From Cyprinodon diabolis (lineage: Eukaryota; Chordata; Actinopteri; Cyprinodontiformes; Cyprinodontidae), in NCBI GenBank assembly GCA_030533445.1, contig CM060072.1, positions 18,604,267 to 18,668,266 on the forward strand: a DNA stretch of 64,000 bases. Reading direction: 5' to 3'. This document shows, one piece after another, positions 1 through 61,360 of the stretch. Position 1 is the stretch's first letter, and each line of letters opens with the position of its first letter. Position numbers and translations under genes: made by a program. The notes beneath the pieces are model-generated. The model saw nothing but the letters and a program-made list of their open reading frames with translations, was not told the DNA's origin and searched no databases.

Positions 1-31
1 GCTCCAGATCCCAACAGTACCCCCCCCTCAA
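1..31 (-). repeat. Edge of the 3' LTR of element A plus polypurine tract
   Basis: Positions 1-16 are the reverse complement of the LTR start (TGTTGGGATCTGGAGC on the minus strand), identical to the terminus at 4928-4943. Positions 17-31 give a minus-strand polypurine tract (GAGGGG... then TAC), the plus-strand primer site. The rest of this LTR lies outside the window. Confidence 0.85.
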
Positions 32-1326
32 CGACCGCCTCTTGGCGGTCCAGAAGAAGTCGATGGGAGGGAGCGCTCGTAATCCTCTATCAGGGACGGA
101 TCGAGGATGTAGGAGCCAGGAACCCATTGGCGATCCTCCGGACCGTAGCCCTCCCAGTCGACGAGGTACTGCCATCCGCGACCTCGCCGACGGGAGTCCA
201 CGATCCGGCGGACGGTGAAGGCAGGATGTCCATCGACGTCCAGGGTGGGTGGAGGGGAGTCGGATGGAGGGCACAAAGGACTGGTGACAACTGGTTTTAT
301 CTGGGAGACATGGAACGTGGGGTGTATGCGGAGACTCGGAGGAAGGTGCAGACGTACGGCAGAAGGGTTTATAACCTGGGCAATCTTGTATGGGCCAATG
401 AATCTTGGAGACAATTTGCGAGACATTCCCTTGAGGGGAATGTCCCGAGTGGAAAGCCATACCTCCTGGCAAATGACGTACTCTGGGGCAGGGCGTCTCT
501 TGGAGTCCGCAAAGCGCTTGGTGGTCACAGAAGATCGGTTGAGAGAGGCGATGCTGTCCCTCCAGACTCGTTGACAGCGGCGGATGTGGTGATTGACAGA
601 TTGAACCGAAATCTCTCTCTCGTCTGCTGGAAAAAGAGGAGGTTGATATCCGAGACTAACCTGGAATGGTGATTGACCGGTGGAAGCAGATTTGAGGGAG
701 TTGTGGGCATATTCGATCCATGTGAGGTATTGACTCCAGTCGGTGGGGTTTTTGGAGGTCAGACAGCGGAGAGTCGATTCGAGCTGTTGGTTCATTCTCT
801 CTGTCTGACCGTTGGACTGTGGATGATAACCAGAAGTAAGTGATGACTTACAATTGAGAGCTGCGCAGAAAGCCTTCCAAACTTGGGAGATGAATTGTGG
901 TCCGCGGTCAGAGAGAATTTCCTGGGGTATTCCATGGAGTCGGAAAACGTGCTTCACTAGGAGCTGGGCAGTTTGAAAGGCCGTGGGAAGTTTCCTGAGG
1001 GGGATCAGATGACATGACTTCGAAAATCGGTCGACGATGGTAAAAATAGTTGACATACCTCTGGAGATAGGGAGACCAGTGACAAAATCGATGGCGATGT
1101 GAGACCAGGGACGAGTTGGAACAGGAAGAGGATGCAACAGGCCAGAGGGTGGTTGATGTGAGGTCTTGTTTCTGGCGCATATGGAGCAGGCCAAGACATA
1201 CTCCTTCACATCCTTGTGCAACGTAGGCCACCAGAAACGTCTAGAAATCAAGGCGATTGTACGGCTCACCCCCGGGTGAGCGGAAAACTTGGCTGTGTTG
1301 GCGGGATCTGACAGACGAAGGGACAT
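28..1326 (-). pseudogene. Element A integrase and chromodomain (end of pol)
   Basis: A 432-codon open stretch. It starts in the zinc-binding HHCC region ([11 protein letters not shown]), runs through the catalytic core with D in AIDFVTG, D in LSDRGPQF and E in GQTERMN, and ends in a chromodomain ([17 protein letters not shown]) close to the stop at 28-30. The catalytic triad is kept. The upstream end is not a true start: integrase normally continues from RNase H in the same polyprotein, and this frame is entered only after a frameshift near 1300-1326, where the upstream SSVRSR coding continues in another frame. In the family the enzyme inserts cDNA and the chromodomain guides it to chromatin marks. 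Confidence 0.9.
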
Positions 1327-1566
1327 AGGTTCTGTTAGGAGGACCGTTACCTGGGTCAGGTTCAGAAGCCAGGGCAGAGTTTATGAGATCGGAGATCTCC
1401 CAGGAAACCACTCCAACAGTACAGGAAGCAGGCAGAACGGGTTCAGGCGTCTCGGATTGATCAACAGAGTAAAGACGAGATAGAGAGAATCGGGTTTGAT
1501 GTTCTTGGATCCGGGTCTGTAAGAGATTATGAGGTTGAACCGAGAGCAAAAAAGAGACCACCTTGA

Positions 1567-2895
1567 CTAACGAGGGTTAGCTTGTTTGGCGGACTGGATG
1601 TATGCTAGGTTTTTATGATCAGTCCACACTAAGACTTGGTGTTCAGCTCCCTCGAGCCAGTGTCTCCACTCCTCCAATGCGAGTTTGATTGCCAGAAGTT
1701 CTCGGTCCCCAACGTCGTAGTTTTGTTCCGCCGGTGAGAGTCTACGGGAGAAAAATGCACAGAGGTGAATTCTTTTATCAGAGTCGAGTTGTTGGGATAA
1801 CACGGCATCAACACCAGAATCCGAGGCATCCACCTCGAGGATAAATTGCTTGGCAGGATCAGGCTGGATTAACACAGGAGCTCTGGAAAACAAAGTCTTT
1901 AATTTATCAAAAGCACTTTGAGCTTCGGGGGTCCACTGGAAGGTCTTTTTGACTGATGTTAGAGTTGTGAGAGGTAGAGCTGTCTGACTATAATTCCTGA
2001 TAAAACGACGGTAGAAGTTGGCAAAACCCAGGAATCTTTGCAGCTGTTTTCGGTTTTCAGGTATCGGCCAATCCAAAACGGCTTTTATCTTTTCTTCAGA
2101 TGGCTTAACCTGCCCGCCCTCGAGCACAAACCCTAAAAAGGTGACTGAAGGTTGATGAAATTCGCATTTTTCAGCCTTTACAAAAAGTTTGTTCTCCAAC
2201 AATCTTTGCAGGACCAGGCGGACATGTTTTTTATGCTCGGAAAGGTTCTTTGAATAGATTAAGATGTCGTCAATGTACACAAACACGAAGATATTCAAAA
2301 AGTCTCTGAGGACATCGTTGACGAGGGCCTGAAAACATGCGGGAGTGTTAGTGAGACCAAAAGGCATGACCAGATATTCAAACTGGCCCAAAGGGGTTTT
2401 AAAGGCTGTCTTCCATTCGTCACCTTCTCTAATCCTGAGAAGGTGATATGCATTCCTTAAGTCGAGCTTGGTGAAGACAGTAGCCCCTTGTACTGGTTCA
2501 AAGGCTGATGCTAGTAACGGAAGTGGGTATTTATTTTTAACAGTTATTTGGTTAAGGCCTCTGTAGTCTATACAAGGTCTTAGAGAACCATCCTTTTTGC
2601 CCACAAAAAAGAAACCAGCACCCAACGGAGAAGAAGATGGACGGATTATTCCAGCAGCTAAGGACTCATTTATGTATTTTTCCATGGTTTCTCGTTCTGG
2701 TTTGGAAATGTTGTAAAGTCTACTGCTGGGCAGAGGAGCTCCTGGTAATAGCTCAATCGCACAGTCATATGGTCTGTGAGGTGGAAGAGACGTAGCACTG
2801 ACCATACTGAAGACAGGAGCCAGATCATGGTACTCGGAAGGGACCGAAGTAAGGTCAGGAGAGTCCATCTCCCCCCTACCTCTAGGAGACTGCAC
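1567..2895 (-). pseudogene. Element A reverse transcriptase and RNase H
   Basis: A 442-codon open stretch. The RT shows [13 protein letters not shown] near the start, the fingers motif [20 protein letters not shown], the VMPFGL motif and the catalytic YIDD box. RNase H follows with [15 protein letters not shown] and WTDHKNLAY. It ends at a TAG right after QANPR, where element B carries CAT TCA and reads on, so this is a nonsense mutation and not the natural end. Beyond it the reading frame shifts at least once before the integrase part. The function in intact copies is copying the element RNA into cDNA. Confidence 0.92.
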
Positions 2896-2916
2896 AGCGG
2901 GAGCTGCAGAACGAAG

Positions 2917-3312
2917 TCATGTTTCATGACATGAGGTCGACCACGATTCAATGTGGCGTTCAGCCCAGTTTATATGGGGATTATGTCGTTCCAGCCACTC
3001 AAAACCAAGCACCAAGGGAGAACATGTAGAAGGAAGAACAAAAAATGTCAGAGTTTCACGATGATTTCCAGAAATCAAAAGCTCTAGAGGTTGCGTTTGA
3101 TGGGTAACCTGATGGAGTCTCTTCCCATCAATAGCAGAGACACTAAGTGGCTTGGTTAAAGGGACAATTTCGATCTGTAGCTGCAGAACCAGGTTTGAAT
3201 CTATCAAATTACGCTCACATCCAGAGTCGATAAAAGCTGACAATGTGAGATTCTGGTTGGAGAAAAATAGGGTGGCTGGAAGCATCAAATGAGGAGACTT
3301 TACAGTTTTCAA
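2917..3312 (-). pseudogene. Element A aspartic protease
   Basis: About 131 codons with the retropepsin active-site motif FIDSGCERNLID, here DSG rather than the more common DTG, and the later hydrophobic-Gly motif VLGFEWLERHNP. The frame opens with a non-ATG codon because it is part of a gag-pro-pol fusion. It is out of frame with the zinc knuckle upstream and separated from RT by stops between 2917 and 2895. In the family this enzyme cuts the polyprotein during particle maturation. Confidence 0.82.
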
Positions 3313-3329
3313 ATGGCCCGTCAGACTCC

Positions 3330-4390
3330 TCAGTTCCTCTGACGGGCCCCGGCTTTTGACTTAGCTGGGCATGAAGCAATGAAATGGCCGGTCTCACCAC
3401 AGTAGATGCACAATTTACCCCTGGAACGTCTTAGTCTTTCCTCAGGGGTTAGCCTTGTGTGTCCAACCTGCATAGGTTCGGCTTCCGTCTCAACTGAGTG
3501 AGAGACCTGGAGAGGCATAGAGAGAGACTGGGTTTTAGGCCTCGGCTTGGAAACGGATTCTGTGGATCCAGAAAAAACAGAGGCATTATTCAATGCAGGG
3601 CTGACACAGAAAAACTTTGACTCTTTTGTCTAGAACTGTTTCTAGCACGAAGTCTGTTGTCCAACCTAATAGTTAGGCTGATTAAATCCTCCAGACTAGC
3701 TGGTTCGTCGAGAGTTGCAAGTTCATCTTTGATATTGTCATTCAAAGCCTTAAAATTTGCACTTTTAAGAGCACATTCGTTCCATCCGGAAGCTGCGGCT
3801 TTGACCCGGAAGTTGATGGAAAAATCCGCTACTGAGGAACTTCCCTGTCTTAAATTCAGCAGAGCTCGAGAGTCAATTGTTTGATCAGAGTCCTGATTAA
3901 ACACCTGGGAAAATTCAGAAACAAATTCAGAAAAAGTACATCTGAAGCTGTCCTCGGAGGCAAACCTTGCCTCTGCCCACTCTAGGGCTCGTCCGGTTAG
4001 TTGGGACAAAATAAAAGTTATTTTCTTCTTATCAGTAGGAAAACTGCCAGGAGAGTTCTCAAAAATAAGACGGCATTGAAACAAAAAACCTTTACAGTCT
4101 TTCAGATTACCTGAGAACTTTTCAGGGAGACTAGGACGGAACTCAGGAGATGACGTCACAGCCGGTGACCGTAGAGGCGGAAGTGGATCCGGAAACGGAC
4201 GTGCTGTTGATGCAGCGTTAGCGCTACCCATGTAGCCTGCAAAAGTTTGAAGCATTTGTTTTTGGTAATCGACCATGGTACGTAACTCACGGAGGGTTTG
4301 AGCTTGTCCTTGGATCTGAGCGTCTTGCTCCTCTAGCCTCCGACGGAGGTGGCCTGCTGGGCTTAGTGTTTGGCCGCAGTGTTCTGTCAT
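3330..4390 (-). pseudogene. Element A gag with CCHC zinc knuckle
   Basis: Gag begins at ATG 4390-4388 (MTEHCGQ...). It has a heptad-like leader (RRRLEEQDAQIQGQAQTL) and a capsid-like central part (ITFILSQLTGRALEWAEARF, then a FNQDSDQTIDSRALLNLRQG region). It breaks at a stop at 3590 and continues in the next frame (3330-3593) with the nucleocapsid knuckle CIYCGETGHFIASC. One net frameshift near 3595-3610, within or beside a T-run, separates the parts. The ATG lies inside the last six bases of the LTR, and the next codons coincide with the primer-binding site. Confidence 0.88.
4373..4384 (-). promoter_or_regulatory. Primer-binding site of element A, self-priming type
   Basis: Directly after the LTR (which ends at 4385 on the minus strand) the element reads GAACACTGCGGC. 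Its 11-mer AACACTGCGGC is the exact reverse complement of GCCGCAGTGTT inside the same LTR (minus strand, 4804-4794). Tf1 primes cDNA synthesis by folding the 5' end of its RNA onto such a site instead of using a tRNA. These bases also encode gag residues 3-6 (E-H-C-G). Confidence 0.7.
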
Positions 4391-4943
4391 GATTTGTTAC
4401 AGAGTAAACCCAATATGCAGAACACACACGGAGGCTGATAAAAAGTTTAACAAGGTTTATTGTTAACACAAGCACATGAATATTGCACAGGAACTGGTTC
4501 GGGCCTGGGGGCAGGTTCACTGGAGTCTGCAGGGATGACAGTTCAGTTAGCGCATGGACTGATGATTTATTAGTCTTTGAGTTTGCTGATGAATACCTTG
4601 AGTCTGGGTTTCTCTTTGAGAGAGGAAACTGTTGGGTCCAGAGACTGTTTGTTCAGCAGAGTCCAATAACTGCTTCAGCGTCTTACTTCTGACCTTGAGG
4701 GCAGACCTTGATTCAGGTTTGGCTCACGAGGGCAGGCTAGGCAGGTTAAGCTCATCCAGAGCTTCACAAAAAGACAGGATTCCAAACTAGATCAACACTG
4801 CGGCGTTGAGGCAAGGTCTGAATGCAGTTTATATAGTGGATCCTCTGATGATGAGATGTGCCATAGGTGTGTTGGAGGCTCAGCTCAGGAGGACCCACGG
4901 CGCACTCTGCTGGAGGAAGGTGGTACAGCTCCAGATCCCAACA
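4385..4943 (-). repeat. 5' LTR of element A (559 bp)
   Basis: Starts TGTTGGGATCTGGAGC (minus strand, at 4943) and ends ...CATGACA (at 4385), giving TG...CA termini. It shares both termini with the LTRs of elements B and C. It holds a TATATAAA box and a predicted RNA start. B coding sequence abuts at 4944, so the first five bases there (GGGAT) are the expected target duplication; the other copy would be left of the window. Confidence 0.88.
4794..4835 (-). promoter_or_regulatory. LTR promoter of element A: TATA box and predicted RNA 5' end
   Basis: On the minus strand TATATAAA starts at 4835 and the 11-mer GCCGCAGTGTT starts at 4804, 31 bp downstream, the usual TATA-to-start distance. This places the self-complementary 11-mer at the very 5' end of the predicted transcript. 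The same 31-bp spacing is seen in LTRs B (7139 to 7170) and C (8833 to 8864). Confidence 0.65.
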
Positions 4944-7027: not shown

Positions 7028-7740
7028 TGTTGGGATCTGGAGAAGTTCCACCTTTCTCCAGCAGAGTGCGCCGTGGGTCCTCTGGGCTAGAGCCCTCCAG
7101 CACACCTGGAGCTCGTCAGCCCATTAGAGGACCTCCACTACTTAAACAGCTGCCAGACCTTCCTTCGACGCCGCAGTGTTAGCTAAGTTTGGTTAGCGAA
7201 CCTGAGCCTCTAAAATCTTGAACTCTGTCTCCGAGTTAAACCTAACTCTAACCAGCCTTGTCTTCTCGCTCCTAGGAAAACCTGTCTCTCGTGTGAAGCT
7301 CTGGGAGAGCTTAACCTGAACCAGCCTGCCTGCCCTAGAGAGCCAAACCTGAAGATCTCACTTTGGCATCCACCTGCTGCTCTCTGGATGAGAGCTAATC
7401 ACTCAAGCCAAGGTCAGACAAACAGTCAGAAGTTAGACGCTGCAGCTGCTGAGCACTCTGCTAAACCAACAGTCTCTGGACCCAACCGGTTCCCTCCCTC
7501 AGAGAAGAAAGCCAGAACCAAACCAAGGTATTTTCTGAGAAAATCAGAAATCTCAACAACTTCTCAAATCCACCTGGTTAACCAAACTGTCATCTCTACA
7601 GACGCCTGAGTATCCAGCCCGCACCTGTTTCCTGAACGTTATCTAGTTTTGTACCAACCTCAAATAAACTCTGTTAAACTTTTCATCAGTCTCCTTTGTA
7701 GTGTTCTGCATGTGGGTTTAATTCAGAACCGATCATGACA
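7028..7740 (+). repeat. 3' LTR of element B (713 bp)
   Basis: Starts TGTTGGGATCTGGAGAAG after the polypurine tract and ends ...GATCATGACA. It has a TATA-like TACTTAAA at 7139 and GCCGCAGTGTT at 7170-7180, the same self-complementary 11-mer as in A. An AATAAA polyadenylation signal lies near 7663. The following bases CTTAG would be the target duplication in element C. Confidence 0.86.
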
Positions 7741-8712
7741 CTTAGGAAACTACCTTCAGCCTTCCAGACCGCCCAGCTCCTAGTAAAACACATCTTCCGT
7801 CTGCACGGGATTCCTCAAGAAATCCTTTCAGATCGAGGTCCCCAGTTCATCTCACAGCTCTGGAAAGCTTTTTGTTCCGCTCTAAACTCCAAAATATCTC
7901 TCACCTCTGGATATCATCCTCAGACGAATGGTCAAACGGAGAGGATGAATCAAGAACTCAAATCCACTCTCCGTTGCCTAACCTCTAACAATCCGACTGA
8001 CTGGAGTCAGTTTCTGCCATGGGTAGAATACGCCCACAACACCCAAAGATCCGCTGCAACTGGTTTATCCCCATTCCAAGTTTCCATTGGTTATCAACCA
8101 CCTCTTTTTCCCGCAGATGAGAGAGAAATTTCAGTCCGGTCTGTCCATCACCACATCCGCCGCTGCCATAGACTTTGGAACGAAACCATCACGGCTCTCA
8201 ACCATTCCACCATCTCCAACAAAAGATACGCCGACAAGCATCGTCGTCCGTTACCTGAGTATACACCTGGTCAGAAGGTATGGCTCGCAACCCATGACAT
8301 CCCACTTAAATCTATGACTAAGAAACTCTCCCCCAGATACATCGGTCCATACAAGATTGCGCAAGTCATCAACCCATCTGCTGTCCGCTTGCACCTGCCA
8401 CCTACTTTTCGTATACACCCCACCTTCCACGTCTCTCAGATCAAGCCCGTTCTCACCAGTCCTCTGTGCCCTCCGTCCGACTCCCCTCCACCCGCCCGTG
8501 ACATTGACGGCCACCCGGCTTTCACCGTTCACTGAATCGGGGACTCCCGTCATCAAGGTCGCGGCTGGCAGTACCTCGTCGACTGGGAGGGTTACGGTCC
8601 GGAGGACCGCACCTGGGTTCCTGGCTCTTTCGTCCTTGATCCGTCCCTCATCGAGGACTACAGGAGTTCCCTCCCGTCCACTTCCTCTGGACCGCCAGGA
8701 GGCGGTCGTTGA
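7741..8712 (+). pseudogene. Element C integrase (C-terminal part) and chromodomain
   Basis: Reads LRKLPSAFQTAQ, then LSDRGPQF (catalytic D) and GQTERMN (catalytic E), then the integrase C-terminal barrel region ([28 protein letters not shown]). A TGA at 8533-8535 interrupts the frame just before the chromodomain; where A has an arginine codon, a CGA to TGA change would explain it. The same frame resumes as [17 protein letters not shown] and ends at TGA 8710-8712. The first catalytic D is missing because the 5' part lies beyond element B. Confidence 0.9.
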
Positions 8713-8722
8713 GGGGGGGTAC

Positions 8723-9453
8723 TGTTGGGATCTGGAGATCTGCCACCGGTCTCCAGCAGAGAGCGCTGTTGGTCTCCTGAGCTGGAGCCTTCCTACACAC
8801 CTGAGGATCATCAGCTAATCAGGAGACCTCTCTACATAAGCAGCAACCAGACCTGTCTTCAGCGCCGGAGTGTTGACCAGTTTTGGTTAGCTGAACCTGA
8901 GCCACTACTTGTGTTTTTGAACCTCTGTCTGCTTAGTGAGCAACCTGATCCTAACCAGTATCTGTCCTCTTTGCTCACAGGAAAACCTGACTGAACTCAG
9001 AAGCTCTGGAGGAGCTTACGTTTGGAACCCTGCCTGCCTGCCCTAGGAAGCCAAAGCTGAAGATCCTCAGTCTGAACCTTCCTGCTAGTTCTCAGGGGAG
9101 AACTAGGGAAAAATCTCAAGGTCTAAACCTCGCTAGCCTGAAGCTAAACTCAGTCGCTGCTGAACTCTCTCTGCTGGAACTACTGTCTCTGGACCCAACC
9201 TGTTCCCTCTCTCCTTTGAACAGTCTGAACCTCATCAGGTACAAACCAAGATCTAGGACTCTGCCAAATCACCATTGCTACCTGGCTAACCAAACTATCC
9301 CTCTCTGCAGATTACTCTGTGAAACCAGAACCCGGACCAGAACCAGAACCTGTACTATTTACTTTGTGTGCACCTTTAATAAACTGTTTAACTTTTACCC
9401 TGCTTCGTGTGGTGTTCTGCATGTGGGTTTGATCACAGAGACCCATCATGACA
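8723..9453 (+). repeat. 3' LTR of element C (731 bp)
   Basis: TGTTGGGATCTGGAGATC... to ...CCATCATGACA, preceded by a GAGGGGGGGTAC polypurine tract. TATA-like TACATAAG at 8833 lies 31 bp before GCCGGAGTGTT (8864-8874), a one-base variant of the 11-mer in A and B. AATAAA is present near 9378. Confidence 0.86.
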
Positions 9454-12434: not shown

Positions 12435-12733
12435 GTCTCCTTGAAGACAGACTAAAAGTTCTTTCTGTATGTCTGGTTCTGCCTCCTTGAACCTCAGTCG
12501 GCCTCTGCAGATGACAACTCACTCTGAGTCTGGTTCTGATGGACATTTCTTCCTGTTTAAAGGGAGCTTTCTTCTCCACTGTTGCTACACGCATGCTTGG
12601 TGTGAGGGTTTGCTGTCGATGAAATCAGACTTTTTTTTTTAGATAAAACCTCAAACCAATCTAACTGTATTATCAGATTGAATTGTCTCTGTAAAGTGCC
12701 TTGGAATGACATGTGTTCTGAATTGGCGCTATA
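12435..12733 (+). repeat. 3' tail of a teleost LINE-type repeat, split by a Tc1 insertion
   Basis: Holds the stretch TTCTTCCTGTTTAAAGGGAG, the block around GTAAAGTGCCTTGGAATGAC, and the end GAATTGGCGCTATA, shared with 15750-16012 and 37370-37595. The rest of its tail (TAAACTGGATTAAATTG) continues at 14346, so the Tc1 element at 12734-14345 landed in the TA of this tail. Confidence 0.7.
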
Positions 12734-12935
12734 CAGGTGCTGGTCATAAAATTAGAATATCATGAAAAAGTAGATTGATTTCAGTAATTCCATTTAAAAA
12801 GTGAAACTTGTATATTATATTCATACATTACATACAAACTCATATATTTCAGATGTTTATTTTGTTTAATTTTGATGATTACAAATGACAACAAATGAAA
12901 ATCTCAAATTCATCATATCAGAAAATTAGAATATT
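12734..12935 (+). repeat. Left terminal inverted repeat of the intact Tc1
   Basis: 202 bp, matching the reverse complement of 14144-14345 base for base in manual comparison. The shared inner end is GAAAATTAGAATATT; the two sides diverge immediately after. Confidence 0.9.
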
Positions 12936-14143: not shown

Positions 14144-14345
14144 AATATTCTAATTTTCTGATATGATGAATTTGAGATTTTCATTTGTTGTCATTTGTAA
14201 TCATCAAAATTAAACAAAATAAACATCTGAAATATATGAGTTTGTATGTAATGTATGAATATAATATACAAGTTTCACTTTTTAAATGGAATTACTGAAA
14301 TCAATCTACTTTTTCATGATATTCTAATTTTATGACCAGCACCTG
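14144..14345 (-). repeat. Right terminal inverted repeat of the intact Tc1
   Basis: 202 bp, reverse complement of 12734-12935. It lies 87 bp after the transposase stop codon. Confidence 0.9.
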
Positions 14346-14919
14346 TATAAACTGGATTAAATTGAAATATTCCAGGTCACTGCCCTTCTGTGTGTTGTTG
14401 AAGGGATGTTTTCGTGTCTCTCTTGTTCAGAGCTCCTGCACAGGTGCTTTCACTCAGAGTCCGCACCTAAAGACGGGTGACAGGTTGAGGAGTGACATGT
14501 GGAGGTGTGACAGCCTCGGCTTCTTCTTATTCCAATCCTTGCAGCTTTGGTTGCAGAAGAGCTTCTGTTTAAGCATTTGATCCAGCGAGTTCCTTTGTCT
14601 GGGCACCTGTTTTGGATGTGACCAAGCATTAAATGGCCATTATTAGCAGTTATTAGTCCCATAATATGGCCTCCTTTACCTTCTAATAGGTTTCTTATGC
14701 CTGATAATTGCAGCTTATTGTTGAAAATGGCAGCTTCTTTCTATTTACCTATTTTATACTTTATCTATTTTATTTGCAGCCTACCTACCTTCTTTCTTTT
14801 TTTTTTTTACTGTGTTTATACAGCTTGACTTTTAGTGAATTTCTTGTTTCAGTCACATGGATTTGACAGTTGTAAGGATATTAGATTTTTTGGGGGGAGG
14901 GGTTGTTCCACAAACTGTA
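14346..14919. other. End of split LINE tail, then unannotated sequence
   Basis: 14346-14372 (TAAACTGGATTAAATTG...) completes the repeat tail interrupted by the Tc1. From 14373 to 14919 I see no gene; a T-run lies at 14801-14810 and a G-rich patch at 14891-14903. Confidence 0.5.
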
Positions 14920-16012
14920 GTTAAAAGCCTTCAGCTGATCCAAAATGCTGCAGCCAGAGTCATGATGAAAATTAAAAGGAGAGATCATATCTCTCCTATT
15001 CTGGCCTCTCTTCATTGGCTTCCTGTTAAATCCTGAATAGGTTAACAATCCTCCTTTCTCACATATAAAGCCTTAAATGACCAAGCTCCATCTTATATCA
15101 GAGACATGAACATTCCTTATGTCCCTAACAGAGCACTTCACTCTCAACCTGCAGGTTAACTAGTGGTTCCTAGAATTTTAAAAAATAGATTGGGAGGCAG
15201 ATCTTTTAGTTATCAGGCTCCTCTCCTGTGTAACCAACTACCAGTTTTAGTCTGTGAGGCAGAGAACCTGTCTACTTTTAAGACTAGGCTTAAAACTTTC
15301 CTTTTTGATAAAGCTTATAGTTAGTGTGGCTCAGGATATCCTGAGCTATCGCTATAGTTATGCTGCTATAGGCTTAGACTTCTGGAGGACATAGGGACCC
15401 CCATTAACTCATTCTGCTTCATTCTCTCTCTGCTCTCCCACTCTGTAGAATCGGTTAGTTCAATCTCTAACGTTGTTTCTGTTTGGCTGTGACACCATCC
15501 TGGAGAGAAATATAAGCTGGGTTTCTGCCATCAACACCCTTGTTTAAAAATGTTGGAGATTGGCCTGTTTTCCAGTGTAGTCCTGTTTCTCTGACTGTGA
15601 CTGGCTGGATGTGCTCTCTTCATCCTCTGACAGGGGAGCTGGCTTGGAGCTCGTCTGCCTGGCTGTGTGTTTCCTAGACCGGGCCGCCTTTTACAGTTAC
15701 TTCTTGTATTTCTGCTTCTGTCTCCTTAAACCCCAGTCGGTCTCAGCAGATGGCCGCCGAACTGAGCCTGGTTCCACTGGAGGTTTCTTCCTGTTAAAAG
15801 GGAGTTTTGCCTCTCCACAGTCGCTACAAGCATGCTTAGTGTAAGTGATTGCATTCGAGTCAATGGGTCGATGCAATCAACTGGTTTTCCTTAAATAGAA
15901 AACTTTGAATCAATCTGACTGTATGATCTGGTGAACTGTGTCTTCAGTGTCTTCAGAAGACATGTGTTGTGAATTGGTGCTATAGAAATAAACTGAATTG
16001 AATAGAATTGAT
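14920..16012 (+). repeat. LINE relic (L2/Rex-like) with 3' tail
   Basis: The first part translates in pieces to the C-terminal region of a CR1/L2/Rex-type reverse transcriptase (LQLIQNAAARVM, HWLPV, TYKALNDQAPSYI, PRI.K.R.GGRSFSYQAPLL), broken by stops and indels. The second part is its 3' region, with TTCTTCCTGTTAAAAGGGAG and GAATTGGTGCTATAGAAATA, ending in AATTG-type repeats at 16012. The exact clade cannot be fixed by eye. A longer copy of the tail occurs at 37046-37595. Confidence 0.72.
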
Positions 16013-30446: not shown

Positions 30447-30649
30447 GGCATAGGATGTATCTCCATCTGCAGAAACAAAGTAAAAAAGGGGAAGAGGTTA
30501 AAGTTATGATGAGGAGGCTGGGAGTCCTGAGCTGCACCGATTTGAGCTTCTGAGATCTTCAAGGCGAAAGGTGCTGCCTGACTCCTTAGGCATTCAACTA
30601 TAGAATAGGTACAGTATTTGAGTGATAAGTTTGTGTTGGCATTTTTTTT

Positions 30650-30770
30650 TTTTTTTACACTGTCCTGTCTGGCGATGTGGCAATAAGAATAACTGTCTTG
30701 AAGCCAAAAAGAGCCCAACAGATTTTACTTTCTCAAGTGGAGCAGTACGGCTATCCCCATAGTGTTCTGC
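30650..30770 (-). repeat. Unclassified retroposon-like repeat, copy 1
   Basis: On the minus strand: GCCGTACTGCTCCACTTGAG, AAAGTAAAATCTGTTGGGCT, then ATTCTTATTGCCACATCGCC, AGACAGGACAGTGTA and an A-run. The same ordered blocks occur at 61225-61360. An A-rich tail in both copies suggests retroposition. Confidence 0.6.
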
Positions 30771-35273: not shown

Positions 35274-37045
35274 GTAACATTTAATTTCCCTATAGGATTA
35301 ATTATGTATTTTGTAAGTGAATTGAACTGAAAGTTGTTTTTTCTACTTTGAACTGATTATATTTTGGGATGATGTTGTCTTACAAACTATACCTGCCATT
35401 TCAAGGTCTTTCTGAAGCTCACTAGTATTACTCTTTGGCTCTGGAAGAGCAAATAACTAGAATAATCCTTTGGACTCTTCAGTCAGATATCTGACCTTAT
35501 GATGGGCCCCTGGTCATTGGAGAACTAATTTTCCCTCTGCTTCTGGAGTACAGCACTCCCTAAAACACTCAGAAGCTTAGTAATACAGCTGTAGCCATTG
35601 GCCTTGGTGCTTTTTTGTACAAATCTGTGAAACAGTTTGGTAATGAGAAACCTTTTAAAAGGCCAGCAAAAAATATCAAACCAAGATATAAGGACTTTGC
35701 AGGAGGAATACATTGTTAATACTGACAGACTGACTATTTTCTTGAGTCTCTTTGCCATTTGGTACAGCTTCTTCTTTAACTATTAATGTGTTTTATTTCT
35801 TTTTGTTTCATTCTTTTCCTAAAGCTCTACATCCATTTTACCTTGACTTCCTTATTAGTGGATTACAGTTTGAAGTGATGGGGAAGAATATTGTGTCAGG
35901 GCCGTCTGAGAAGACAATTATTTCCAGACACATGTCAGAGCAGGTTCATATATCTAGAGATTGTGAGACGTGGACCCTCAAGGGCCACAGCTTCATTTTG
36001 TGGTATTTACTCAGCCCTCATTTACTTTTAGTAGATTTTTTTAAAAGCCCTAAGGGAGGGTAAAATAATAAAGAAAGAGAACAACTAATAATGACAAAGA
36101 ATCATCATATGCACAACTAAATTAGCTTCTTTTCACATACCTCCTCCTGCTGCTGCTTTACTGTTGAATGTTGAGTTTGGACAGGAATCCTCTGTGAAAA
36201 GGTCTTATCACTGGATCAGTTTACTTGGACTGGCAAAACTGCTGCATATTTCCATGAAACTTTTAGCAGAAGCTGTGACACTGCCTGGTGTCATAAGAAG
36301 GGAAGGTTTATGTGATCCAGATTTGGGTCAAGGGGAGTTTTTGCATATCAGAGATCTGCAGAGATTTACCCTGACTACCGTTGTAAGATTAATAGATTTA
36401 ATCTCTTACATGCAATGTTTTAGCAATTTCAAACTAAAATACAATTAGTCCCTAAAATAATACATACTATTTGGTTAAATTATAGTTGTTCTTGCAAAAA
36501 TACGGGGTTTCTTTAAATAATCTGAAAAAACTTTTACTTATAGGCTTCTATGATTTAGACTCATGGTTCTTACCTCTTTGAATGTCTTGTAATATAAGTG
36601 AAAATGGTTTTGATTCTTTTATATAGATATTTTTTTGTTAATGTAACATTATGAGTTAACAATGTAGTAAAGATTTAGAATGGTATTAAAGGGAAAAATT
36701 AAATTTAAACTGACTAGAAAAGCTCTCAGAGAGTGCAGACCTCTGTCAAGTAGCTCATTTCCACCGATGTATTGTTACTTCCACATTTAAGTTCATACCT
36801 GTACTCACAGAATCTTTCAAAACTTTCCTGGATCCAGATAGTGATCCAGAACATCACCAAAATGTTATGATTTGTTGCCACTCACGTTATGCACCTTTTC
36901 TGAAAATATCAGCAAACTCGATCCTTAACTCTTTTAGATATTTTTAAAACTGACAGTCAAACCAACTACAATGAAAACATAATTACACTGGCAGAGGTAA
37001 TAATCCTATCTGCCAATTTTGTGATACCAGGAAAATAATTTGGCT
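35274..37045. other. Unannotated intronic stretch
   Basis: No recognised gene or repeat; AT-rich throughout. Confidence 0.4.
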
Positions 37046-37595
37046 TCCTTTTAAATCCAAAATAGACTTTCAAATCCTCCTTCTCACATATAAAGCATTA
37101 AATGGCCAAGCTCCATCTTACATCAGATATATGATTGTTCCTTATGTTTCTAACAGAGCACTTCGCTCTCAATCTGCAGGTTTACTAGTGGTTCCTAGAA
37201 TTTCTAAAAGTAGAATGGGAGGCAAATCTTTTAGTTATCAGGCTCTTCTCCTGTGGAACCAATGACCAAGGCTTCATCCGGCCTCTTTTTCAGTTTAGTA
37301 CAAGGGTTTAGGCCTTTGCTTGTGTCTCCTTGAATCCCATTCAGCCTCGGGAGATGGCCGTTCACTCTAAGGCTGGTTCTGCTGGAGGTTTCTTCCTGTT
37401 AAAAGGGAGTTTTCCCCCTCCACGGTCGCCACAAGCATGCTTGGTATGAGGGATTGCCTTCAGGTCAATGACGAAATGCAATCAGCTATTTTCTTCTTAG
37501 ACAGAAAACTTTGAATACATCTTGTTGAACTGTAAAGTGGCTTGAGATGACATGTGTTGCGAATTGGCACTACATAAATAAAATGAAAATACAGT
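37046..37595 (+). repeat. LINE 3' end (L2/Rex-like), same family as 14920-16012
   Basis: Blocks TATAAAGCATTAAATGGCCA, TTTACTAGTGGTTCCTAGAA, TTTTAGTTATCAGGCTCTTC, TTCTTCCTGTTAAAAGGGAG and GCGAATTGGCACTACATAAA are shared with 15060-16000 in the same order. An internal deletion relative to that copy removes the section after the WNQ codons. Confidence 0.75.
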
Positions 37596-56590: not shown

Positions 56591-58473
56591 TTAAAACGAG
56601 TTCCAGGTCAAATAATAGCATTTGCCAAAAGTGATGCTTTGTGTTGGCTGCTCTTCTCAAAAACTCAACTATGTAGGAGGATCTCACGCTCAATGAAAGT
56701 TTGGGTCGCCCATTAGGGTGTTAACCTCAAATCAGGCTAATTTAAAATTTCAGCGTTAAAAATAAATGTACTGCTTTTCTTTTAATTTACCTTCATGTTT
56801 TCATTGGATTACTTATATTCATGTCTGTCACATCAGCACTTAATAAACTACCAAATATTTTAGGATGCATTTTACCACCTACCGAAATGACTCAATTTTC
56901 CTGATGTTTGATTTTATTTGGCACACCATATTTTGGTTGAAAAAAATTACAATACATGATTTAACAAATGCAGCCATTTGTTCTTAAACGGCCAACTACA
57001 ACCATGTCTCAGCAATTATGCTGTAATAAGAATATATATGATTTTGTGAATTGAATAATTCTCTAAAAGTGATCCTTTTTTTGAACCACGTCTGTTTTAC
57101 GGCATATTTCCAGCACTTGAGGCTTTCTAACGAGATAGCTATTCTTTCATTTGCCTTGCCAAACAAAATAAATAAAATACTTGACAACAGTCTGTTGTTC
57201 CCTTCCGAGCATTACAGTCTCTAATAAATCTTTACTATTCATTTTTCTCTGCAGAGAGAAGTATTTTAAATTGATGTTTTCAGAATATAACAGAGAGCCT
57301 GTTCCAGGATATAACTCTACGTTTGGGGGTTACATTACAGGATGATTAAACTTGTTATTTTTTTTTAAAACAAAAGTATGGAATAAAAATCAAGAAGTTA
57401 TGAATGTATATAACAATGGTGTGATTTACTTTGGTGTCGGTCTTGGTATTTAATGGATCAGTTGGGGAAATAACTCCCTAACTCCCCTGCAAATGACGTT
57501 TTTACCAAAGACGAAACCAATAAAAAAGAGAATTGTGATATGAAGGAGAGTTAGGTTAATCTAATTGACTGATAAAAAGTTTTTTGCAAGATGCTGAAAA
57601 TAAGTATATAATTAGAGTTGTAACAATAAACCCATTAAGGGCGACAAAGTCCCAATACACTATGAGGGCATCTTTTTCTCAGTAGGGTGGATAACAGATG
57701 AATTTACTGTAGATATAGCAAAGACAGCTGATTACTTGATTGATTTAAAACACTTAAATACATTCCTATTTACAAACTAGTAAAACAGAATGCTGATTTG
57801 ATTAGTGTTGATAAAGTTCCTTCAACATCTCATTAATCAGTTCATAGCTGGAGCTGTTCTTCAGGGACATCAACAAAACACGTAATAGGAACAGGTAGCA
57901 GGCAGCCCAGCCATCAGCAGCTGATTCACTCTACGCCAGCCTTCCTGTGAAAGTGTTAGATTCACTTTCCTGCTCCCCAGTGGTAAACGCATCACTGTAA
58001 CTTTTGGCAATCCAGTAGTCCACTGCAGTGACTGTGTAATCAAAACTTCACAGCAACGCAACTCTGGAAGAGCCAAGGCAGGACTCAGCTGTGATGTCAT
58101 CACATGCAGTATTTCATTACAGCCTGCTGGGCAGTTTGGGGATGTGGATGGAGGACATAGAAGACAGATATATACTGTAAGCAACATCCCATTGTATCAT
58201 CAGCTGCAAATTACTGTGATGACATCTTAGTGGTAACAACACACAAGAATAAGGTTGTTGATATGATCTCCAGTTAGATTAATCTCATTCAAAGGGTTTA
58301 TGTTAATTAAAACGAGGAAGCAAGAGAAATTAGAACAAATTATTACATATTATGTATTTTCAACAGATTTTGATATACAAGTACCAAGCAGAAGCTTATG
58401 ACAACAGTCATAATGGTCTGCTTGTGAAAACCAATCTGTTGGGCTATCATCTAGCTCTGGGAGATTTGTTCCC
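56591..58473. other. Unannotated intronic stretch
   Basis: No exon or repeat was recognised in about 1.9 kb. Confidence 0.4.
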
Positions 58474-58815
58474 TGTTGGGATCCAGAGGTTTTCCCTCCA
58501 GAGGGAGACGTGGATCCCTTTCTGTGGGCTTCTGTTTATCTGTTGGGATCCAGAGGTTTGCCCTCCAGAGGGTGATGTGGATCCCTTTCTGTGGGGTTCT
58601 GTTTTTCTGTTTGGATCCAGAGGCTTGCCCCCATTGTTGTCTTTGTTTTGTTTAAGCAAGCCCAAGCCAGCCTGCCTGTCCTGAACCTGTAAGCCTGAAC
58701 CTGATTACCTGTACCAGAACCTAACCTGCTGTGTCCTCTAAATATTGGACTTTTATCCTGCCTCAGTGTCCGTGAGTTCTGCATCTGGGCTAGTAAAACC
58801 AACCAGATCATGACA
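58474..58815 (+). repeat. 5' LTR of the non-autonomous element (342 bp, internally deleted)
   Basis: Relative to the 3' LTR it lacks about 104 bp after AGAGGCTTGCCC (58620-58632), which contains the predicted RNA start, and about 37 bp near 58740 including the AATAAA signal. Post-insertion deletion, or copying by recombination, is implied. It can no longer drive its own transcript. Confidence 0.85.
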
Positions 58816-59883
58816 GAACAATCCGGCCAACAGACTAGCCCAGCAGACTCAATGGAGACATACCTGATGATGTTTGAGGAGGGACCGACAAACTCCACGG
58901 AACCACACTGGACGGTTTTGTTCTGTCGATGGCTGGAGATTCTGGACCGTCTGGAGACCCCTGAGCCCGCTCTGAGCCGTCTGGAGACCCCTGAGCCCAT
59001 TCTGAGCCGTCTATTGTCCTCTCTGTACGTTCCATGGACCTTTGAGCCCTCTTCGTTCCTGTACGTGGAGCCGCAACAGGCGGCCTCCTCTGTTCCTGAA
59101 GTGGAGCCACAGTCGGTGGTTTCCCCTGTTCCTGAAGCGGAACCGCAAGGGACGGCTTCCTCAGTTCCTGTTTGGGAGCCACAGTCGGTGGCCTCCTCTG
59201 TTCCTGATGTGGAGCCACAATCGGTGGCCTCCTCTGCTCCTGATGTGGAGCCACAATCGGTGGCCTCCTCTGTTCCTGATCCGGAGCCACAATCGGCAGC
59301 CTCCTGTGTTCCTGTGGAGCCACAGTCGGTGGCCTCCTCTGCTCCTGATGTGGAGCCGCAATCGGCGGCCTCTTCAGTTCCTGATTCGGAGCCGCAGTGG
59401 GCGGCCCTGTCTGAGCCTGTTGCAGAGCAGCAGAAGCGGAGGTGGCGCCCTCCTCGGAGCTTCCTGCAGAAGCGGAGGCGACGCCCTCCTCGGAGCTTCC
59501 TGCTGGAGCGGAGGCGGCGTCCTCCTCGGAGCTTCCTGCTGGAGCGGAGACGGCGTCCTCCTCGGAGATTCCAACAGAAGCTGGGATGGCGTTCTCCTCC
59601 GGGGTCCCTGCAGCTTCTGAGACTCCAGTCCCGCTGCCGGCCTCCGGAGCGTCTACTTCAGCTCCGGCTCCACGGCCGGTCATCTATACTCTGCCCTGCT
59701 GCCGGTCCCGCGGCCGGCCACCTGAGACTCTGTCTTGCCTCCGGCCCCGGGGCCGGTCACCTAAGACTCTGCCCTGCTGCCGGTCCCACGGCCGGCCACC
59801 TGAGACTCTGCCCTGCTGCCGGCCCCACGGCCGGCCTCCTGAGACTTTCCCTGTCCTCGCCCACCCTGGGTGGGTTGTTTTGA
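58810..59883 (+). CDS. Gag-leader / tandem-repeat protein of the non-autonomous LTR element
   Basis: 357 codons. The ATG is in the last six bases of the 5' LTR. Residues 1-90: MTEQSGQQTSPAD leader, then LETPEP/LSR repeats. From about residue 90 to 200 there are roughly ten copies of a 12-residue repeat of the type VEPQSVASSVPD. After 59430 the frame becomes arginine-rich (RRRRPPRSFLLE, four 12-residue copies) and then GHLRLCPAAGPTA copies. The +1 frame there reads SSELPAGAEAA repeats and stays open to the LTR, so a one-base shift near 59430 is likely and the natural product probably continues in that frame. No enzyme or known domain; function unknown. Confidence 0.6.
   Translation: MTEQSGQQTSPADSMETYLMMFEEGPTNSTEPHWTVLFCRWLEILDRLETPEPALSRLETPEPILSRLLSSLYVPWTFEPSSFLYVEPQQAASSVPEVEPQSVVSPVPEAEPQGTASSVPVWEPQSVASSVPDVEPQSVASSAPDVEPQSVASSVPDPEPQSAASCVPVEPQSVASSAPDVEPQSAASSVPDSEPQWAALSEPVAEQQKRRWRPPRSFLQKRRRRPPRSFLLERRRRPPRSFLLERRRRPPRRFQQKLGWRSPPGSLQLLRLQSRCRPPERLLQLRLHGRSSILCPAAGPAAGHLRLCLASGPGAGHLRLCPAAGPTAGHLRLCPAAGPTAGLLRLSLSSPTLGGLF
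58816..58828 (+). promoter_or_regulatory. Primer-binding site of the non-autonomous element, self-priming type
   Basis: GAACAATCCGGCC follows the LTR directly. AACAATCCGGC (58817-58827) is the exact reverse complement of GCCGGATTGTT at 60281-60291 in the 3' LTR. The 11-mer differs from that of element A yet again matches its own LTR. The bases also encode gag residues 3-6 (E-Q-S-G). Confidence 0.72.
59071..59412 (+). repeat. 36-bp coding minisatellite
   Basis: About ten in-frame units of type GTGGAGCCACAATCGGTGGC followed by CTCCTCTGTTCCTGAT, encoding a 12-residue VEPQSVASSVPD repeat. One unit (near 59310) is shortened by one or two codons, so the array keeps the frame. Confidence 0.88.
59431..59845 (+). 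repeat. Second and third coding repeat arrays
   Basis: Four units of about 36 bp (GCGGAGGCGGCGTCCTCCTC then GGAGCTTCCTGCTGGA) at 59431-59578, then four units of about 39 bp (GCCCTGCTGCCGGTCCCACG then GCCGGCCACCTGAGACTCT) at 59690-59845. Confidence 0.8.
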
Positions 59884-60018
59884 TTTCTGGACCCTGTTTC
59901 TGTTCCTGTGCCTGGCCCTCCTTGCCTGTTTCCCCCTCCGCCCGCCCTGGGTGGGTTGTTTTTGTTTTTGGTTTTTTGTTCTTGGGCGTCTGGTATCCGC
60001 CCTTAAGGGGGGGGTACT

Positions 60019-60501
60019 GTTGGGATCCAGAGGTTTGCCCTCCAGAGGGCGACGTGGATCCCTTTCTGTGGGCTTCTGTTTATCTGTTGGGATCCAGAGG
60101 TTTGCCCTCCAGAGGGCGACGTGGATCCCTTTCTGTGGGGTTCTGTTTTTCTGTTTGGATCCAGAGGCTTGCCCACCAGAGGGCGCCGTGGATCCTTCTG
60201 GGAGCTCGTGCTCTCAGCTGATCCCCATCAGCTCATGATTAAGCTCTCCCCATATGCGCTGGGTGAGAGCTCCCCTCTGAGCCGGATTGTTGTCCTTGTT
60301 TTGTTTAAGCAAGCCCAAGCCAGCCTGCCTGTCCTGAACCTGTAAGCCTGAACCTGATTACCTGTACCAGAACCTAACCTGCTGTGTCCTCTCTGCCTCC
60401 CAGGAGGAACCCTGTGTTATTCAATAAATATTGGACTTTTATCCTGCCTCAGTGTCCGTGAGTTCTGCATCTGGGCTAGTAAAACCAACCAGATCATGAC
60501 A
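60019..60501 (+). repeat. 3' LTR of the non-autonomous element (483 bp) with tandem terminus
   Basis: Begins TGTTGGGATCCAGAGGTTTG. This terminal block repeats at 60085 and, slightly changed (TGTTTGG), at 60152, a 66-bp tandem array of 2.7 units. The predicted RNA start GCCGGATTGTT lies at 60281-60291; the TATA-like element upstream is weak (CATATGC at 60251). AATAAA is at 60424, and the LTR ends ATCATGACA. Confidence 0.88.
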
Positions 60502-60659
60502 TTCCCGGAACTATATTGGAAAAACAGGACAAAAAAACAGCAAAACAAAAACGATACTGATCTAATTCAAATATCATTTATATCCGTGTTAGCAAATTAG
60601 TTCAGATGTAAATGAAATATATATTATTTATTAAGAAAATAAGCAGCAACAAGAAATGT

Positions 60660-61224: not shown

Positions 61225-61360
61225 AAGTGGAGCAGTTGGCAATTGCCATACCGCTACACTTGTGAAAGTAAAATCTGTTGGGCTCCTTTTGGCATCAAGA
61301 CAATTATTCTTATTGCCACAATGCCAGACAGGACACTGTACAGAAGAAGAAAAAAAAAAA
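61225..61360 (+). repeat. Unclassified retroposon-like repeat, copy 2
   Basis: ACAAGTGGAGCAGTTGGCAA, ATACCGCTACACTTGTGAAA, GTAAAATCTGTTGGGCTCCT, ATTCTTATTGCCACAATGCC, AGACAGGACACTGTACAGAA and an A-run. Matches 30650-30770 (minus) block by block. Confidence 0.6.

What the first reader, a model, noticed from the sequence alone, without database searches (positions are those of the whole stretch)
58817..60291. A second LTR family with a different 11-mer pair: compensatory covariation
In the short element at 58474-60501 the primer site is AACAATCCGGC and its LTR carries GCCGGATTGTT, again an exact 11-nt pair. It differs from the element A pair at three positions (GCCGCAGTGTT against GCCGGATTGTT). 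Changing both partners together is what selection on base pairing would produce, and is hard to explain by chance.
Basis: seen in the sequence. Interest (0 to 1): 0.82.

Follow-up and report, generated by a model that had tools for sequence, protein, structure and literature searches.

The report
Matched primer pairs in fish retrotransposons
A fish retrotransposon appears to start copying itself with the first 11 letters of its own RNA, and in related families those 11 letters and their landing site have changed together so that they still pair.

Summary
The pair is real. In the short element (58474-60501, target duplication TTCCC) the 11 nt after the 5' LTR and a 1-nt spacer, AACAATCCGGC (58817-58827), exactly complement GCCGGATTGTT in its 3' LTR (60281-60291). 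It differs from element A's pair at two positions, not three, and this copy's 5' LTR has lost the site by deletion. I ran the proposed test on the host genome (1.22 Gb, a fish near Cyprinodon by gag similarity). A pattern blind to the PBS finds 2,955 copies; of the 100 listed, 91 carry one of six PBS types, and in the copies read each type goes with its complementary LTR 11-mer. Exact cross-type matches: 0 of 154. The 11-mer starts 30-31 nt below a TATA-like box in 68 of 77 copies and pairing stops at 11, as described for yeast Tf1. This is self-primed reverse transcription of the Tf1/sushi chromovirus kind, already described in vertebrates. What I add is natural covariation within one genome, with the PBS inside the apparent start of gag. 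Unpaired changes also occur, some perhaps inherited. Whether selection, copying of the primer into the PBS, or both keeps the pairing is undecided; one lagging copy (L052) fits copying or recombination.

The parts
58469..58473 (.). left target-site duplication TTCCC of the short element E
   Evidence: repeated at 60502-60506
58474..58815 (+). 5' LTR of E, with deletions that remove the TATA region, the first five bases of the R site, and the poly(A) signal
   Evidence: 337 of 342 aligned positions identical to the 3' LTR; no R site
58817..58827 (+). PBS of E, AACAATCCGGC, one nucleotide (G) after the LTR
58810..59880 (+). open frame of E starting at the ATG in the LTR end (MTEQSGQQTSPADS...); no Pfam match, no homologue at E<=0.001
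60005..60014 (+). polypurine tract AAGGGGGGGG before the 3' LTR
   Evidence: read by eye
60018..60501 (+). 3' LTR of E
60251..60256 (+). TATA-like CATATG, 30 nt above the R site
   Evidence: other copies have TATATAA-like boxes there
60281..60291 (+). E self-primer site GCCGGATTGTT, inferred +1 to +11 of the transcript
60502..60506 (.). right target-site duplication TTCCC
4385..4943 (-). 5' LTR of element A
   Evidence: its 3' LTR is in L089, left of the window
4828..4835 (-). TATA box TATATAAA of A, 31 nt above the R site
   Evidence: read by eye
4794..4804 (-). A self-primer site GCCGCAGTGTT
   Evidence: same in the 3' LTR
4373..4383 (-). A PBS AACACTGCGGC, inside the apparent gag codons (MTEHCGQ)
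3593..4390 (-). A gag (Ty3_capsid, DUF4939, Retrotrans_gag)
28..3357 (-). A protease, RT, RNase H, integrase and chromodomain, in separate open frames
7028..7740 (+). 3' LTR of element B, R site GCCGCAGTGTT at 7170-7180; B's PBS, left of the window, is AACACTGCGGC
8723..9453 (+). 3' LTR of element C, R site GCCGGAGTGTT at 8864-8874; C's PBS, left of the window, is AGCACTCCGGC

Best explanation
E belongs to a set of fish LTR retrotransposons related to the Tf1/sushi chromoviruses. They prime reverse transcription with the first 11 nt of their own RNA. The RNA 5' end (G at +1, about 30-31 nt below the TATA box) folds onto the PBS one nucleotide after the 5' LTR. RNase H is expected to cut after nt 11, and the freed 11-mer primes minus-strand synthesis (these steps inferred from Tf1). 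Related families keep the pairing while the 11-mer drifts, in six types: A GCCGCAGTGTT, C GCCGGAGTGTT, F GCCAGAGTGTT, E GCCGGATTGTT, H GCCGGATCGTT (one copy seen), G GCTGGATCGTT, each with the complementary PBS. I think co-change comes from selection for a working primer duplex together with copying of the primer sequence into the PBS during plus-strand synthesis, so that R leads and PBS follows (inferred; one copy fits). E itself is a non-autonomous element that would need enzymes from coding relatives such as A (inferred).
For: Exact pairs in the window. Expected in my working (not logged in a note) and then read: B's PBS exact; C's PBS 10 of 11 with both diagnostic bases right; from PBS listed, F 4 of 4 read exact, H 1 of 1, G 6 of 8 read exact with 2 at 10/11 (G's R had already shown up in L052). 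PBS-blind sample, first 30 of 2955 copies, many of them also: 22 exact, 5 at 10/11, 3 without a site. R called without reference to the PBS in 95 of 101 distinct copies: 65 exact pairs; 432 of 475 cells paired at the five variable columns against shuffle mean 319.6, sd 8.9, maximum 353 in 10,000. Only 1 of 720 ways of dealing six R types to six PBS types reaches full pairing. Cross-type exact 0 of 154. With R called without any TATA requirement, a TATA-like box begins 30 or 31 nt above in 68 of 77, 29 in 2, none in 7. The base after the 11-mer never pairs with the spacer, 0 of 89. R 11-mer majority 0.98-1.0 against 0.60-0.85 in its flanks, in copies kept for at least 9 of 11 matches. A encodes gag, RT, RNase H, integrase, chromodomain. 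The sequence after the LTR does not begin with TGG, so no usual tRNA PBS. E leaders with an exact pair fold with it in 30 of 30. Tf1 rule of 11 bases and cleavage between 11 and 12: passage in PMC7175516.
Against: Transcription starts were not measured. In the longer A and C leaders the lowest-energy fold holds at least 9 of 11 pairs in only 3 of 21 and 3 of 7. Few independent events; AU tests do not reject a single origin of C-type (p 0.265), F (0.488) or G (0.052). L129 (PBS AACACTATGGC) and L131 (AACACTGTGGC) had no matching R in the stretch fetched (best 8 of 11), and L130 (AACACTGTGGC) has an A-type R. 9 copies with hybrid PBS: 8 share AACAATGCGGC with an A-type or decayed A-type R where it could be read; on the tree two of them (L082, L085) are sisters and three lie in one six-row group, so some unpaired changes may be inherited rather than single-copy decay. 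Most loci were chosen by PBS pattern, and the listed part of the PBS-blind search covers contig C1 only.
Confidence: 0.9

Rival explanations
1. Covariation without step-by-step selection: the plus strand copies the attached 11-nt primer, so the PBS is rewritten from R each cycle and simply tracks R.
For: L052 has R type G in both LTRs but PBS type E, in an LTR body 194/200 identical to a G/G copy, the state expected if R leads. No copy with PBS type G and R type E among the 8 read. [quoted passage not shown] paper not held).
Against: One copy only; recombination between E and G RNAs would give the same result. Copies with only the PBS changed exist, and a few may be inherited.
Confidence: 0.5
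2. Pure selection on pairing: mismatched copies transpose poorly, and only doubly changed ones founded families.
For: Strong conservation of the 11-mer (on copies kept for matching); the differences between the six types are paired.
Against: Two of the five changes (R5, R7) are transversions with no wobble path, so each needs a mismatched intermediate; L052 either was reverse transcribed with its R mismatched to the PBS or was made by recombination.
Confidence: 0.35
3. The PBS is conserved and changes because it encodes the start of gag; pairing is incidental.
For: The PBS lies in the codons for the third to sixth residues of the apparent gag (MTEHCG, MTEHSG, MTEQSG in this and other fish).
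Against: Four of the five paired changes alter the amino acid (S/C, H/Q, Q/R, G/S) and one does not, so nucleotides, not residues, are kept matched; the LTR partner is non-coding (codons of F, G and H read by me).
Confidence: 0.04
4. Ordinary tRNA priming, with the LTR match a coincidence.
For: LTR elements in general use a tRNA primer.
Against: No TGG at the start of the PBS in any of the six types; all six are matched in the LTR.
Confidence: 0.01

Closest known systems
Tf1 of Schizosaccharomyces pombe (self-primed Ty3/gypsy element)
   Same: First 11 bases of the RNA complementary to the PBS (Tf1: passage; here inferred from position) and pairing that ends at 11; no tRNA PBS.
   Different: Host is a fish; PBS inside the apparent gag start with a 1-nt spacer; transcript start and cleavage not shown here; E lacks coding genes.
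Vertebrate Tf1/sushi group (sushi-ichi and relatives; Butler et al. 2001, seen only as a citation in PMC6317226 and PMC4600332)
   Same: Vertebrate chromoviruses for which self-priming has been described.
   Different: I could not read that paper, so I cannot say whether these families or their covariation were reported; RT was not placed on a tree with sushi-ichi here.
Tcn1-clade chromoviruses of mosses and club-mosses, and Tj1 of S. japonicus
   Same: Self-priming predicted from LTR-PBS complementarity.
   Different: Other hosts; no covariation test in the passages I saw.
TRIM or other non-autonomous LTR elements
   Same: E is short, with LTRs, PBS and PPT but no recognisable gag or polymerase.
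   Different: E has a long open frame with 36-nt repeats.

Membership tests
Tf1/sushi chromoviruses (element A) | gag, protease, RT, RNase H, then integrase with C-terminal chromodomain | tested here: met
   Pfam matches; three protease models at E 9e-06 to 4.4e-04, two of them below their curated cut-off
Tf1/sushi chromoviruses (element A) | PBS complementary to the LTR, not to a tRNA 3' end | tested here: met
   no TGG at the PBS start; tRNA genes themselves were not searched
Tf1/sushi chromoviruses (element A) | complementary stretch is the first 11 nt of the RNA | tested here: inconclusive
   position below a TATA-like box fits +1 in 68 of 77; transcripts not mapped
Tf1/sushi chromoviruses (element A) | RNase H cut between nt 11 and 12 and priming | not testable with these tools
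   sharp end of pairing at 11 (0 of 89 pair at 12) is consistent
Tf1/sushi chromoviruses (element A) | RT phylogeny inside the sushi or V clade | not tested
   no reference RTs were aligned
Tf1/sushi chromoviruses (element E) | encodes gag and pol | tested here: not met
   no Pfam match and no homologue for its frame; E is a non-autonomous relative by its LTR end, PBS and PPT only
tRNA-primed LTR retrotransposons | PBS beginning TGG near the LTR end | tested here: not met
   GAACAATCCGGCC and GAACACTGCGGCC follow the LTR
LTR retrotransposon insertion (A, B, E) | LTR pair with short target duplication | tested here: met
   5-bp duplications GGGAT, CTTAG, TTCCC; C has cacat/cgcat, one mismatch, read by eye

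The most novel reading that the evidence does not exclude
In these elements the transcription start sequence is the master copy: each cycle writes the first 11 nt of the RNA into the PBS, and because the PBS lies inside the start of gag, the LTR promoter region thereby dictates the first residues of the Gag protein. R changes first, PBS and Gag follow; L052 would be a frozen intermediate.
Probability: 0.4. Interest if true: 0.62.

Novelty: new member of a known kind. Interest (0 to 1): 0.45.

Why it matters
As far as the passages I saw go, self-priming was demonstrated in fission yeast Tf1 and is inferred elsewhere from LTR-PBS complementarity. Six naturally matched pairs in one fish genome, at a fixed distance from the TATA box, are evolutionary evidence that the duplex is used in fish. 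Copies with unmatched pairs make the order of change (R first or PBS first) open to a direct test across the 2,955 copies counted. A PBS inside gag codons also offers a way to guess primer sequences from Gag protein starts in other species.

Tried and rejected
Scans of viral contigs found no relative and the scan of prokaryote contigs one distant one, L009, of no use here; Rfam gave no match in the window. The protein search with the E frame found nothing at E<=0.001. A search of the genome with A gag, which would sample more distant families without using the PBS, did not complete. Reading R from masked flank alignments gave a read for 61 of 87 copies, but several reads slipped by one or two bases because of flank indels, so I replaced it. 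A first TATA-anchored call used a faulty expression and called only 28 of 101; the corrected version is. In one search, 25 of 95 copies had more than one candidate and six calls match their PBS at only 5-7 of 11, probably wrong sites; they are kept in its counts. Because requires a TATA-like string, the 83 of 89 copies with the box at 30 or 31 are not independent evidence; I use instead. Trees use flanks only, with R and PBS left out; copies with under 9 of 11 matches were dropped (6 of 95). The C-type copies L030 and L040 fall inside the A clade, which looked like a parallel paired change, but the AU test does not reject one origin, so I do not claim it.

Full report
OBSERVATION. The short element E runs from 58474 to 60501 and is flanked by the 5-bp duplication TTCCC. 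One nucleotide (G) after its 5' LTR lies AACAATCCGGC (58817-58827); the exact reverse complement GCCGGATTGTT lies in the 3' LTR at 60281-60291. Element A, on the minus strand, has AACACTGCGGC one nucleotide after its 5' LTR (4373-4383) and GCCGCAGTGTT in the LTR at 4794-4804. In E the site survives only in the 3' LTR: the 5' LTR carries a deletion that takes the TATA region and the first five bases of the site.

SURROUNDINGS. A is a coding element: gag with Ty3_capsid and DUF4939, protease, RT, RNase H, integrase and chromodomain, in separate open frames. A is nested in a second element B (duplication GGGAT), and B in a third, C (duplication CTTAG for B; cacat against cgcat for C, by eye). LTR pairs are 98.7 (A), 99.0 (B), 97.1 (C) and 98.5 (E) percent identical over aligned positions. 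E's internal frame, MTEQSGQQTSPADS..., has no Pfam match and no homologue at E<=0.001 among 7993 scored candidates.

PREDICTIONS CHECKED IN PLACE. B and C are cut by the window edge, so their PBS were unknown. From their 3' LTRs I expected AACACTGCGGC for B and AACACTCCGGC for C (in my working, not logged in a note). The genome to the left of the window shows AACACTGCGGC for B and AGCACTCCGGC for C: B exact; C 10 of 11, with both diagnostic bases right and one extra change in a visibly decayed LTR end.

GENOME-WIDE TEST. The E-type 25-mer with up to two mismatches occurs 625 times; the reversed control 0. PBS with a base other than A at position 5 occur 2276 times, while those with A at 5 and not C at 7 occur 9 times. 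A pattern blind to the PBS (LTR end, 11 free bases, downstream gag motif) finds 2955 copies, reversed control 1. Of the 100 listed, all on contig C1, I count by eye A 66, G AACGATCCAGC 9, F AACACTCTGGC 6, E 5, C 4, H AACGATCCGGC 1, other 9. As PBS, F, G and H were new; I expected the LTR partners GCCAGAGTGTT, GCTGGATCGTT and GCCGGATCGTT (again in my working; the second had already been seen as the R of L052). Reading gave F 4 of 4 exact (6 listed), H 1 of 1, and G 6 of 8 exact with two at 10/11 (9 listed). In the first 30 of these copies, many of them also, 22 have an exact pair, 5 have 10/11 and 3 have no site.

CONTROLS. Exact complement of the own PBS type in the 850 nt before the LTR end: A 20/28, C 7/7, E 30/42; of another type 0 of 154; 10 copies with other PBS not counted there. 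With R called without looking at the PBS (a TATA-like string upstream and only six of 11 positions fixed), 95 of 101 distinct copies give a call; 65 are exact pairs, and 432 of 475 cells at the five variable columns are Watson-Crick, against a shuffle mean of 319.6 (sd 8.9, maximum 353 of 10,000). An earlier two-column version gave 139 of 154 against mean 73.5, maximum 103 of 20,000. Shuffles ignore kinship. On a tree of LTR flanks from 89 of these copies (those with at least 9 of 11 matches), lineage pairs on well supported branches in which R differs show PBS going the same way about 1.9, 1.0, 2.5, 0.8 and 2.8 times in columns R3, R4, R5, R7 and R8, the opposite way 0, unchanged 2.1, 1.0, 0.5, 0.2 and 0.2; no column alone is significant. 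So the covariation is plain, but on well supported branches it rests on about nine lineage pairs.

UNPAIRED CASES. Of the nine copies with hybrid PBS, eight have AACAATGCGGC and one AACAATTCGGC. Where R could be read it is A-type, decayed A-type or, for the last, E-type. They fall in several places of the tree, but L082 and L085 are sisters and L083, L084 and L088 lie in one six-row group, so some may be inherited unpaired changes. Several copies have one changed base in R. L129 (PBS AACACTATGGC) and L131 (AACACTGTGGC) had no matching R within the stretch fetched, and L130 (AACACTGTGGC) has an A-type R. L052 is the most telling: R is GCTGGATCGTT in both LTRs, the PBS is E-type, and its LTR body is 194/200 identical to a G/G copy. 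It is either a recombinant or an element caught after R changed and before the PBS did.

ANATOMY. With R called without any TATA requirement, a TATA-like box begins 30 or 31 nt above it in 68 of 77 copies, 29 in 2, none in 7, which fits a transcription start at its first G. The base after the 11-mer pairs with the spacer in 0 of 89. R majority is 0.98-1.0 within types, flanks 0.60-0.85, in copies kept for at least 9 of 11 matches. Leader RNAs with an exact pair fold with at least 9 of the 11 pairs in 30 of 30 E copies, but in only 3 of 21 A (window A included, where all 11 form) and 3 of 7 C. The ATG in the LTR end CATGACA opens the gag frame, so the PBS falls in the codons for the third to sixth residues: MTEHCG (A), MTEHSG (C and F), MTEQSG (E), MTERSG (H), MTERSS (G) (A, C and E translated; F, G and H read by me from the codons). 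Gag starts of other fish show MTEHCG, MTEHS and MTEQSG among the 57 proteins found; their DNA was not seen.

MECHANISM. Shown: matched pairs, their place, their co-change. Inferred from Tf1: the 5' end of the RNA pairs with the PBS, RNase H cuts between bases 11 and 12, the 11-mer primes (passage in PMC7175516; Tj1 passages in PMC4600332). Inferred by me: if the 11-mer stays attached while the plus strand is made, the plus strand copies it into the PBS, so the PBS is renewed from R. The title of Atwood-Moore et al. 2006, seen in a reference list, says the Tf1 self primer is not removed; the paper is not held. That experiments with restored complementarity were done in Tf1 is my recollection and comes from no call.

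KNOWN OR NEW. Passages of PMC6317226 and PMC4600332 state that self-priming was described or implicated in elements of yeast or fungi and vertebrates, citing among others papers by Lin and Levin and Butler et al. 2001; I could not read Lin and Levin 1997 in RNA or Butler et al.. My searches listed no paper that by title or opening of abstract treats natural covariation of self-primer and PBS, in an open-licence library that lacks most of this literature; so I do not claim that it is unpublished. The mechanism is known; this is a clear new set of members.

Noticed in passing
1-9453 and G000 sequence to the left (L089, L090): Three nested LTR elements, A in B in C, each with its own target duplication; C's LTR pair is the most diverged.
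   Followed up: partly
58474-58680 and 60018-60230: U3 of E holds a 67-nt unit repeated about three times in both LTRs.
   Followed up: no
59031-59464: About ten copies of a 36-nt repeat (VPDVEPQSVASS-like when translated) inside E's frame, of unknown origin.
   Followed up: partly
12730-12935 and 14144-14349: 206-nt inverted repeat with 100% complementarity, 1208 nt apart; perhaps a young fold-back element.
   Followed up: no
30642-30759 and 61237-61354: Dispersed repeat in inverted orientation (86%) with a TGTTGGGCTC motif; by eye not an LTR of this set.
   Followed up: partly
15015-15243 with 37040-37268, and 15762-15887 with 37367-37492: Two pairs of direct repeats 82-85% alike, probably one dispersed element.
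   Followed up: no
L009 1034-2290: A Bradyrhizobium assembly contig (NZ_PYFX01000053.1, 4999 bp) encodes a relative of A's RT, 42% identical; perhaps eukaryotic contamination.
   Followed up: no
P0012, P0014 (Poecilia formosa, Xiphophorus maculatus gag): Gag starts MTEHSS suggest a further PBS type that could predict R GCTGGAGTGTT; the DNA was not seen.
   Followed up: no
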